Under the pieces are notes generated by a model. That model had not been told where the DNA came from, searched no databases, and saw only the letters and a program-made list of their open reading frames with translations. 50,762 nucleotides of DNA from a virus, in IMG/VR virus record IMGVR_UViG_3300023104_000006, positions 1 to 50,762 of that record. One strand, given 5' to 3'. How positions within the stretch are numbered: the first letter of the stretch is position 1; every line of letters begins with the position of its first letter. Below, piece after piece: positions 21,286 through 22,967 of this stretch. Both the position numbers and the translations under genes were made by a program.

Positions 21286-21765
21286 TTACGGGAGGGTGTT
21301 AATGTCTATCGCGAGCCCAGCGGTAATTAAACCGAATACATCGAAGTGGTATTCAAACATCCACCAGTTAATTTCCGTTATTGGCACAAATGCTTTTGGT
21401 GATTCTCCATAATAAGCATCGTAAACATCACAAAAACACCCCTCATCTATTCTTAAATCGTGTCGGCTATAAAAAACGACCACTTCATCATTTATTAAAA
21501 TCGGTTTTTTAATATCAGACAAAGGCCTAAGAATAGGTTTTAACAATAAATCAGCATCCTTTCTTATTTCGAAATCGACAACTGAAAAAGTGCCGCCAAG
21601 TTTAGACCGAACACGACCGGACATTATTGCGTTACCGTTAAGTCCTTTAGATAATTTGAACAATTCATATTGAGCATCTTTAATGCCAAATATTTTATTT
21701 TCCGTGCCTTGTAGTTTTAATCCGTAAGGTAGATACGGGGCTAAATGTTTAAGTTCTAATTTCAT
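21286..21765 (-). CDS. Conserved Bacteroidota phage protein of unknown function, 159 aa
   Basis: It begins MKLELKHLAPYLPYGLKL and carries KPILRPLSDIKKPI and a C-terminal YHFDVFGLITAGLAIDINTLP. I know this pattern (LPYGLK... ILRPLSDL... HFDVFGLI..GLAIDI) from many uncharacterised Bacteroidota phage and prophage proteins. No function is established. I chose the ATG at 21765; a longer frame extends into the tRNA-like gene and is not credible. It lies 42 bp downstream of that RNA. Confidence 0.8.
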   Translation of the reverse strand: MKLELKHLAPYLPYGLKLQGTENKIFGIKDAQYELFKLSKGLNGNAIMSGRVRSKLGGTFSVVDFEIRKDADLLLKPILRPLSDIKKPILINDEVVVFYSRHDLRIDEGCFCDVYDAYYGESPKAFVPITEINWWMFEYHFDVFGLITAGLAIDINTLP

Positions 21766-21807
21766 TTTTACTGCTAAGCTTTTAATTCGTTCACCATTAT
21801 ACAAAAG

Positions 21808-21956
21808 TGAGTATGGCAGGACTCGAACCTGCATGATAGCTTTTAATCTACGGGCAGCAGCCTAACTGACTTCCCCCTTACGGTTCCCATGTACCTACGT
21901 ATCGCCGAGTCGTATCTATCTTAAGTCAAAGCGTCTACCAGTTCCGCCACATACTC
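21808..21956 (-). tRNA. tRNA-Leu-like RNA, 149 nt, with a large insertion in the anticodon/variable region
   Basis: On the minus strand, the 7-bp acceptor stem GAGTATG/CATACTC is perfect, with discriminator A and no encoded CCA. It has TG at 8-9, a Leu-type D arm (GCG GAACTGGTAGA CGC, with G18G19) and a perfect T arm (GCAGG TTCGAGT CCTGC). Between D and T arms are 98 nt rather than the usual about 32. CTTAAGA could read as a UAA anticodon loop, but its 3' stem is not adjacent. Alternative pairings are TTGACTT with AAGTCAG, GATAG with CTATC, and GCTTT with AAAGC. Its own consensus promoter ends 7 bp before the 5' end. It may be an intron-containing tRNA or a tRNA-like RNA with a new role. Confidence 0.7.
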
Positions 21957-21963
21957 AACAAAA

Positions 21964-21994
21964 CAAATATACTTTGGGTTATGTATCTTTCCAA
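21964..21994 (-). promoter_or_regulatory. Consensus promoter of the tRNA-like gene
   Basis: Minus-strand TTG (21994-21992), 20 bp and TATATTTG (21971-21964), 7 bp before the RNA 5' end, which places the transcription start at or near the first tRNA base. The dispersed repeat core lies just upstream. Confidence 0.8.
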
Positions 21995-22013
21995 CACTAT
22001 AACTTTTTATCAT
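21995..22013 (-). repeat. Dispersed element, copy B (core plus one mismatch)
   Basis: On the minus strand the 16-base core ATGATAAAAAGTTATA is identical to copies at 10008-10023 and 39731-39746. The following bases are GTG instead of ATG. It abuts the -33 element of the tRNA-like promoter, 26 bp before the -7 box. Confidence 0.75.
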
Positions 22014-22036
22014 AGGTTGGTGAGTTTGGTTATAAT

Positions 22037-22063
22037 AAAAAAAGGCCATCCGAAGCCAGCCTT
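22037..22063 (-). terminator. Intrinsic terminator of the methyltransferase gene
   Basis: On the minus strand AAGGCTGGC-TTCG-GATGGCCTT forms a stem with a cTTCGg tetraloop, followed by seven T residues. Confidence 0.8.
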
Positions 22064-22091
22064 ACGCCTCAACTAAGGTTATCTCACTAAC

Positions 22092-22967
22092 TTAGTGAGG
22101 GATATTTTTAAAAAACTCTACTATTGTATCTACTTGCCATCCATTACCCAGGGCGTGATAACGTGCAGAATCGCTACCAAAAGTATAATCATCTTTTATA
22201 CCCTGCAATCTTTCATATTCATTTGGTGTAAAGTACCTTGGGCCCGCACTTGTCATTACTGATTGAACGCGTCCACCACCCTGTGATGTATCGATTGCCT
22301 CCGTTTTGCCATTGGAATCAAATACCTGATTATTACGCCTAAAGCTTTTATTGTGAAATAATATTTTAATTAACTTATCCTGATTTGTGCCAGATGGTAC
22401 TAATTTGTTAATTACTATCTTAGATAGGTAATATTTTACTTTTACCTTGTCTTGTATAATATCACGAATCAATACACCTTTATCTTCAGGCATGACAAAA
22501 CCGGGAATATTAGTCCAGTATAATCTTTGCCTATTTTGCGCGCTAACTAAAGCAGAATTAACAAAAACGGGTTCCACTCCTAAATATTTGCTAATAACAT
22601 CTTTGCTTTCCTTTGCCATCCTGACATTCTCTAAAAAGAAATACTTTGGTTGTAATTCTTCACGTAACCTAACAAACTCGAAAAACAGTTTACTACGTGG
22701 GTCATTGAAATTCAACTGCTTACCGGCAAAAGAAAAACCCTGGCATGGACTACCTCCTATCAATAGATCAATAGGAGACATAAAATGCTCTTTTCGTATC
22801 TTTGTTACGTCCCCGAACTGAATTGTTTTCGGCCAATTACGTTGCGTTACCTTAACAGCACGTTGATCAATTTCGGAAGCATAGTATTTATTAATCGGGA
22901 TTCCTGCTCTATGCAGTGCAACTTGACCGCAGCTTATCCCGTCAAAGAGTGATAGTACGTTATACAT
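22092..22967 (-). CDS. DNA (cytosine-5) methyltransferase, orphan
   Basis: All main C5-methyltransferase motifs are visible in order: SAM-binding LSLFDGISCGQVAL (I), catalytic GGSPCQGFS with Cys75 (IV), FLENV with Glu113 (VI), SAQNRQRLYW (VIII) and GNGWQVD near the C-terminus (X). The target-recognition region is short (about residues 160-240), and 291 aa is small for the family. It transfers a methyl group from SAM to cytosine in a specific site. No restriction enzyme is beside it, so it likely protects phage DNA from host restriction. It is read from a perfect leftward promoter with a 16-bp leader. Confidence 0.93.
   Translation of the reverse strand: MYNVLSLFDGISCGQVALHRAGIPINKYYASEIDQRAVKVTQRNWPKTIQFGDVTKIRKEHFMSPIDLLIGGSPCQGFSFAGKQLNFNDPRSKLFFEFVRLREELQPKYFFLENVRMAKESKDVISKYLGVEPVFVNSALVSAQNRQRLYWTNIPGFVMPEDKGVLIRDIIQDKVKVKYYLSKIVINKLVPSGTNQDKLIKILFHNKSFRRNNQVFDSNGKTEAIDTSQGGGRVQSVMTSAGPRYFTPNEYERLQGIKDDYTFGSDSARYHALGNGWQVDTIVEFFKNIPH

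What the first reader, a model, noticed from the sequence alone, without database searches (positions are those of the whole stretch)
21808..21956. A 149-nt tRNA-Leu-like RNA with an extra about 65 nt and a dedicated consensus promoter
The minus-strand RNA has perfect acceptor (7 bp) and T stems, a canonical TTCGAGT T loop and a Leu-type D arm, but 98 nt lie between D and T arms. It is too short for a standard self-splicing group I intron plus tRNA. Several pairings fit the insert: TTGACTT with AAGTCAG (7 bp with one G-T) and GATAG with CTATC (5 bp), which cross and would form a pseudoknot, or GCTTT with AAAGC. A perfect promoter starts transcription at about its first base. It could be an intron-bearing suppressor-like tRNA, a decoy for tRNA-cutting host defences, or a tRNA-shaped regulator. 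These roles are inference.
Basis: partly seen in the sequence, partly recalled or inferred. Interest (0 to 1): 0.85.

Follow-up and report, generated by a model that had tools for sequence, protein, structure and literature searches.

The report
Phage tRNA mimic without an anticodon
A virus of bacteria makes a small RNA that keeps the top half of a transfer RNA but has a changeable folded insert where the anticodon should be; it belongs to a large, apparently undescribed family of phage RNAs, probably used to act on host machinery rather than to build proteins.

Summary
Minus-strand 21956-21808 is a 149-nt RNA gene with a 7-bp acceptor stem, A73, a Leu-type D arm, a canonical T arm and a 98-nt interior. 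Rfam tRNA matches it at 37 bits; ARAGORN misses it. An intrinsic terminator lies upstream, and a Bacteroidota-type promoter ends 7 nt before its first base.

It is not an odd tRNA on its own. Pattern scans of IMG/VR (row-capped) gave hundreds of relatives with the same top half and interiors of about 17-125 nt. Acceptor stems covary: 90 distinct 5' strands in 190 RNAs. Removing an insert does not restore an anticodon arm, although it does in about half of a class-I tRNA control set. In 143 RNAs chosen only by their 3' end, 2 have an anticodon arm. Interiors form A-B-A'-B' pseudoknots more often than shuffles. They are swapped between phages (L122/L124: flanks 97-99% identical, interiors unrelated), recur in different frames, and occur up to six per few kilobases.

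Best reading: an anticodon-less tRNA(Leu)-like chassis carrying an exchangeable structured domain, acting in trans as a tRNA mimic. Function is inferred. The leucine-identity elements known to suffice without an anticodon arm are kept. Closest known RNA: T4 rnaC (species 1), function unknown.

The parts
21808..21956 (-). 149-nt anticodon-less tRNA(Leu)-like RNA, G1 at 21956 to A73 at 21808
   Evidence: Rfam tRNA 37 bits; structural scan
21950..21956 (-). acceptor stem 5' strand GAGTATG
   Evidence: 7/7 pairs with 21815-21809; stem covaries in the family
21931..21949 (-). U8-G9 and Leu-type D arm TGGCGGAACTGGTAGACGC (A14, A15, G18G19, A20a)
   Evidence: the same elements in most RNAs chosen by their 3' end only
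21833..21930 (-). 98-nt variable interior replacing anticodon arm and variable arm, ending in U48
   Evidence: no restorable anticodon arm
21923..21929 (-). helix A 5' strand TTGACTT, predicted to pair with AAGTCAG at 21872-21866
   Evidence: p about 0.05 for a helix this strong starting at 26/27
21866..21872 (-). helix A 3' strand AAGTCAG
21916..21920 (-). helix B 5' strand GATAG, inside the loop of helix A
   Evidence: helix B enriched in the family with two-sided compensatory changes in several families
21835..21839 (-). helix B 3' strand CTATC, ending 2 nt before the T stem (the family's preferred spacing)
21816..21832 (-). T arm GCAGG-TTCGAGT-CCTGC
21808..21815 (-). acceptor 3' strand CATACTC and discriminator A73; next base is C74, no CCA encoded
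   Evidence: C74 is frequent in the family and in normal tRNAs of the same loci
21964..21994 (-). Bacteroidota-type promoter TTGG-N19-TATATTTG
   Evidence: same position enriched in the family
22042..22063 (-). intrinsic terminator after the methylase gene, separating it from the RNA's promoter
21286..21765 (-). downstream gene, phrog_10841, unknown function, ATG 42 nt after the RNA (context)
   Evidence: homologues in L122 and L124 also follow a tRNA-like RNA directly

Best explanation
The locus encodes a stable, anticodon-less tRNA(Leu)-like RNA. A dedicated promoter starts it at about its first base. Host tRNA-maturation enzymes (RNase P or the transcription start itself at the 5' end; RNase Z or exonucleases and the CCA-adding enzyme at the 3' end) should give it tRNA ends. 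Acceptor, D and T arms form a normal tRNA elbow, so tRNA-binding host proteins can recognise it, probably including LeuRS, which does not need an anticodon. It cannot decode. The interior is a pseudoknotted 'cargo' domain exchanged between phages as a module. It most likely acts in trans as a tRNA mimic that occupies or misleads a host factor, such as a tRNA-targeting defence enzyme, LeuRS or EF-Tu, with the interior setting the target or blocking normal use. Shown: anatomy, family, covariation, lack of an anticodon arm, module exchange. Inferred: maturation, charging, target, decoy role.
For: Acceptor stems in hits not selected for pairing: 190 of 214 have at least 6/7 pairs, 90 distinct strands, mean 6.94 pairs against 4.30 when strands are permuted. 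Contiguous anticodon arms: 2 of 143 RNAs chosen only by 3' end, 81% of normal-size tRNAs in the same loci. No arm restored by removing an insert. Among those 143, A15-U48 in 99 of 130 scorable, A20a in 99 of 130, G15 tends to go with C48 (Fisher p 0.006). A review (PMC9976931) states that E. coli tRNA-Leu lacking anticodon and variable arms is still leucylated if A73 and D/T-loop contacts are kept, and lists A15-U48, G18G19 and A20a as essential. Pseudoknot: (32% against 10% of shuffles at score 26); compensatory changes in helix B of several families, in A and B of L035/L073. Swapping: L122/L124, L066/L214; same interior in different frames; multiple copies. No conserved gene neighbour. Viral bias: few real hits in 257 Gb of bacterial genomes, one in a prophage context (Alistipes L427).
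Against: No transcript, processing, charging or phenotype data exist. The query's own pseudoknot is weakly supported, and no close relative of its interior or frame was found. Anticodon-less hits also occur with class-I D arms, so leucylation cannot be the whole story. A short gene follows in the query, so a cis role is not excluded. First scans were anchored on a Leu-type D arm and all were row-capped, so abundance and D-arm conservation in those sets are partly by selection.
Confidence: 0.55

Rival explanations
1. tRNA-scaffolded small regulatory RNA: the tRNA top half only protects and trims the ends, and the interior base-pairs with mRNAs or binds a regulatory protein.
For: Interiors vary greatly and move as modules; the RNA is an independent unit; no partner gene.
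Against: The query interior pairs with the phage's own start regions no better than shuffles (p 0.11). Leu-type identity elements are kept beyond what end protection needs. Host targets not tested.
Confidence: 0.2
2. Cis-acting processing element: the tRNA-like fold marks cleavage sites that set the 5' end of the following mRNA (tRNA punctuation).
For: No terminator after the RNA on its strand; a gene starts 42 nt downstream, and its homologues in L122/L124 follow a tRNA-like directly. 62% of Leu-type long RNAs have an ATG ORF within 150 nt against 40% at random.
Against: Other homologues of that gene (L121, L123, L125-L128) lack the element; neighbours are not conserved; a large structured interior that is exchanged is not needed for cleavage; several copies occur in tRNA clusters.
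Confidence: 0.12
3. A translating tRNA-Leu(AAG) interrupted by a mini-intron of about 47 nt in the anticodon loop.
For: Helix A starts exactly at position 27 and the loop could be read UUAAGAA with anticodon AAG. Phage tRNAs with 40-50-nt inserts that restore an anticodon arm do exist (L464, L467, L498, L525), and L004 and L095 look like tRNA-Leu(UAA) with inserts in the loop.
Against: The 33-nt variable region is more than twice the Leu size; restorable arms in the Leu-type family do not clearly exceed shuffle rates; the query does not carry the ACAGCAA-type insert.
Confidence: 0.06
4. A decayed tRNA gene with no function.
For: No anticodon arm; interiors differ widely.
Against: Perfect acceptor and T stems with strong covariation, conserved tertiary pair 15-48, compensatory changes in interior helices, promoter placed at the 5' end.
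Confidence: 0.03

Closest known systems
T4 rnaC (species 1 RNA, 139 nt) and relatives in T4-like phages
   Same: Phage-encoded stable RNA of similar size beside tRNA genes; canonical T arm CCGGG-TTCGAAT-CCCGG and a tRNA-like acceptor that is 7/7 paired in Yersinia phage TG1. Expressed late, function unknown (PMC9697503, PMC3014915).
   Different: No canonical D arm found; acceptor has two U-U mismatches in T4; conserved at 95% identity or more in most matching records instead of exchangeable.
Minimal E. coli tRNA-Leu lacking anticodon and variable arms
   Same: Keeps acceptor stem, A73, D arm and T arm; still charged with leucine (review PMC9976931).
   Different: Engineered deletion; no large structured interior; charging of the phage RNA is untested.
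tmRNA
   Same: tRNA-like ends, no anticodon, pseudoknots in the inserted part.
   Different: No Rfam or ARAGORN tmRNA match; full D arm here, Leu-type rather than Ala-type; far shorter; no tag reading frame recognised.
Theta (HDV-like) ribozymes of gut phages
   Same: Phage, tRNA-associated, nested pseudoknot topology (PMC10879173).
   Different: Those cleave next to tRNAs; here the pseudoknot is inside the tRNA fold, spacings are variable, and no Rfam ribozyme matches.
Phage tRNAs used against tRNA-cutting defences (T5 tRNAs, T6 tRNA-Tyr against Septu)
   Same: Phage tRNA-shaped RNA proposed as decoy or supplement (PMC13096335).
   Different: Those are complete decoding tRNAs.
Cas12a3 tRNA substrates
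   Same: The enzyme grips acceptor stem, T arm and CCA tail, the parts kept here (PMC12851939).
   Different: Only a possible target; no link to these phages was tested.
Irregular allo-tRNA-like polycistrons from soil metagenomes
   Same: Non-translating tRNA-like sequences in arrays, function unknown (PMC7609411).
   Different: Built on 8/4 or 9/3 acceptor branches with anticodons; not described as phage RNAs with exchangeable interiors.

Membership tests
tRNA (Rfam RF00005), as a fold | acceptor, D and T arms with tRNA consensus | tested here: met
   37 bits, above the gathering score
tRNA-Leu (decoding) | anticodon arm with 7-nt loop and U33 | tested here: not met
   no contiguous or insert-restorable arm with a normal variable region
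tRNA-Leu (decoding) | long variable arm of about 11-18 nt | tested here: not met
   33 nt from the end of helix A to the T stem
tRNA-Leu (charging by LeuRS) | A73, A15-U48, G18G19, A20a | tested here: met
   sequence of 21956-21808; elements as listed in PMC9976931
tRNA-Leu (charging by LeuRS) | accepts leucine | not testable with these tools
   needs biochemistry
Group I intron in tRNA-Leu(UAA) | intron of 200 nt or more with P3-P8 core | tested here: not met
   98-nt interior in all; no Rfam intron match
tmRNA | tmRNA covariance match with tag reading frame | tested here: not met
HDV-like (theta) ribozyme | match to a described HDV-like family | tested here: not met
   no Rfam ribozyme match in 21700-22100 up to E 5; self-cleavage not testable here
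T4 rnaC family | sequence similarity to species 1 RNA | tested here: not met
   rnaC matches are, by organism, almost all phages of enterobacteria; the query finds nothing in phage records
Phage anticodon-less tRNA-like chassis family (described here) | intact acceptor, D and T arms, A73, U48, no anticodon arm, enlarged structured interior | tested here: met

The most novel reading that the evidence does not exclude
Phages carry a modular RNA platform: a tRNA(Leu) chassis, matured and perhaps leucylated by the host, that displays exchangeable pseudoknotted domains, several per genome, each aimed at a different host factor such as a tRNA-targeting immune enzyme.
Probability: 0.3. Interest if true: 0.93.

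Novelty: new variant of a known kind. Interest (0 to 1): 0.8.

Why it matters
Phage tRNA annotation relies on finding an anticodon, so these RNAs are passed over (ARAGORN gave none here), although they are common in viral contigs. If they are tRNA mimics with swappable domains, they would be a broad RNA counterpart of anti-defence proteins and would give a general handle on the long-open question of what stable phage RNAs such as T4 rnaC do. They also offer natural examples of a tRNA chassis that tolerates inserts of up to about 125 nt, useful for RNA engineering.

Tried and rejected
Intron reading: tested against shuffles and a class-I control set; rejected for this family. Group I intron, tmRNA, ribozyme: no Rfam match. 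Hidden anticodon loop upstream of helix B: individual sequences looked promising (L017 CTCATAA, L060 CTGATAA) but hairpins with anticodon-like loops are only slightly enriched (8.5% against 3.9%). Partner gene: none recurs. Antisense to the phage's own start regions: not better than shuffles. Whole-RNA MFE: uninformative. Same frame as the query elsewhere: none, by D-arm side or 3' side. Nucleotide match in annotated phages: none. Literature: nine searches of open papers found no description of the family; closed papers were not searchable.

Full report
1. Observation. The minus-strand sequence 21956-21808 reads GAGTATG (acceptor), TGGCGGAACTGGTAGACGC (U8, G9, D arm), 98 nt of interior, GCAGGTTCGAGTCCTGC (T arm), CATACTC (acceptor), A73. 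Rfam's tRNA model matches it end to end with 37 bits, placing 52 nt in the anticodon loop and 30 in the variable region. ARAGORN reports no tRNA in the window. The 7-bp acceptor, 5-bp T stem and 3-bp D stem are perfect. For this one sequence they are modest evidence (p 0.15 to 0.011 depending on how tightly the geometry is fixed).

2. Surroundings. Upstream, on the same strand, a C-5 cytosine methylase gene (22967-22092) ends, followed by an intrinsic terminator (22063-22042). A Bacteroidota-type promoter follows (TTGG-N19-TATATTTG, 21994-21964) that ends 7 nt before the RNA. No terminator was found between the RNA and the next gene (21765-21286, phrog_10841, unknown function), so the RNA opens an operon. 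The portal protein is closest to those of Cellulophaga and Flavobacterium phages (26% identity), in line with a Bacteroidota host (inference). The structural scan found no other tRNA or tRNA-like RNA in the 50.8-kb record.

3. Relatives. In 214 distinct hits of the first two scans, where the acceptor was not part of the pattern, 190 have 6 or 7 of 7 acceptor pairs, with 90 different 5' strands. Mean pairs are 6.94, against 4.30 when 3' strands are permuted. The same pattern in 257 Gb of bacterial genomes gave 91 stretches, most of them tandem, truncated or gapped tRNAs; about 18 look real by eye. Among the named ones, the Alistipes sp. dk3624 copy sits in a prophage (anti-repressor, Erf, repressor).

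4. No anticodon arm. I asked whether removing one contiguous insert gives a perfect 5-bp, 7-nt-loop arm with U33 and R37. In a control set with class-I D arms this works for 46% at the strict score against 0% of shuffles, so the test has power. In the Leu-type set it stays at or near shuffle rates. L004, L095 and L047 look like real tRNA-Leu(UAA) genes with inserts. A sample chosen only by T arm, CCTGACT acceptor and A73 (143 distinct RNAs) has an anticodon arm in 2, against 81% of normal-size tRNAs in the same loci. In that sample A15-U48 is present in 99 of 130 scorable RNAs, A20a in 99 of 130, and G15 tends to pair with C48 (p 0.006); bodies run from 38 to 137 nt, and some have the insert in the D loop (L599, L652, L639). 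Anticodon-less hits also occur with class-I D arms, so the chassis is not always Leu-type.

5. Interior structure. In 200 non-redundant interiors, a strong helix whose 3' strand lies next to the T stem occurs in 40.5% against 12.4% of dinucleotide shuffles. A crossing pair of helices (A-B-A'-B', score 26 or more) occurs in 32% against 9.7%. The 3' strand of B prefers to end 2 nt before the T stem, as in the query. Pairs of related interiors show changes on both sides of helix B (L038/L078, L151/L223, L163/L213, L168/L191, L141/L145) and of both A and B in L035/L073. Most families have only two members, so these are counts, not a calibrated test.

6. Modularity. L122 and L124 are near-identical over 400 nt upstream (99-100%) and in the first 200 nt downstream (97%), yet carry unrelated interiors of 80 and 36 nt. 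Both lie directly before a homologue of the query's downstream gene. The L124 interior matches 35 of 36 bases of one in L086, in a different acceptor frame. Other interior families also recur in different frames (L132/L230, L135/L178, L078/L266). L066/L214 repeat the flank-conserved, interior-swapped pattern. Several phages carry many copies with identical ends and different interiors: L119, L113, L039, L065 and L586 with six matches in 5 kb. No neighbouring gene family recurs.

7. Function. That the RNA is matured like a tRNA is inferred from its fold, A73 and the C74 that it shares with normal tRNAs of these phages. Charging by LeuRS is inferred: a review of tRNA identity states that E. coli tRNA-Leu needs A73, A15-U48, G18G19, A20a and D/T-loop contacts but neither anticodon arm nor variable arm (PMC9976931), which is what the query keeps. 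A trans-acting, host-directed role is inferred from fast exchange, multiple copies, independence of neighbours and viral restriction. The decoy idea is consistent with enzymes such as Cas12a3 that grip acceptor, T arm and CCA tail (PMC12851939), but no target was tested.

8. Known things. T4 rnaC is the closest described RNA: stable, tRNA-like 3' end, function unknown. In Yersinia phage TG1 its acceptor is fully paired, but it has no canonical D arm and no sequence link to the query. tmRNA, group I introns and theta ribozymes were tested and do not fit. I therefore call the RNA a new variant of a known kind (phage tRNA-like stable RNA), belonging to a family that I could not find described in the open literature.

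9. Limits. The first scans select for a Leu-type D arm. There is no expression or biochemical evidence. No close relative of the query's own interior is known.

Noticed in passing
L464, L467, L484, L498, L512, L525 (phage contigs): Ordinary-looking class-I phage tRNAs with 40-50-nt inserts near positions 28-30 of the anticodon stem; removing the insert restores a perfect anticodon arm, and many inserts share ACAGCAA. Possible undescribed mini-introns.
   Followed up: partly
L418 (Prochloron didemni), L363 (Trichormus), L375 (Paraprochloron), also L509, L503: A second insert family with GGGCCGAAG...GGTTATC; several insert-bearing tRNAs lie in one 8-kb stretch of the Prochloron genome.
   Followed up: partly
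L004, L095: tRNA-Leu(UAA) genes with hairpin inserts of about 47-55 nt between U and AA of the anticodon, the classic group I intron site but far too small for one, with CCA encoded.
   Followed up: no
L006, L177, L324: A complete tRNA or tRNA-like RNA appears nested inside the interior of another tRNA-like RNA.
   Followed up: no
L002, L007, L050, L090, L093, L233, L380, L401: A hairpin of the form GCCGGGAAAGACCGGC sits directly upstream of the tRNA-like RNA in several contigs.
   Followed up: no
L519, L532, L542, L555, L568: Class-I chassis RNAs without an anticodon arm share a conserved interior motif CATGGYnAAGGRCC, a distinct family.
   Followed up: no
L599, L639, L652: AGTCAGG-type RNAs with the extra sequence inserted in the D loop instead of the lower half.
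   Followed up: no
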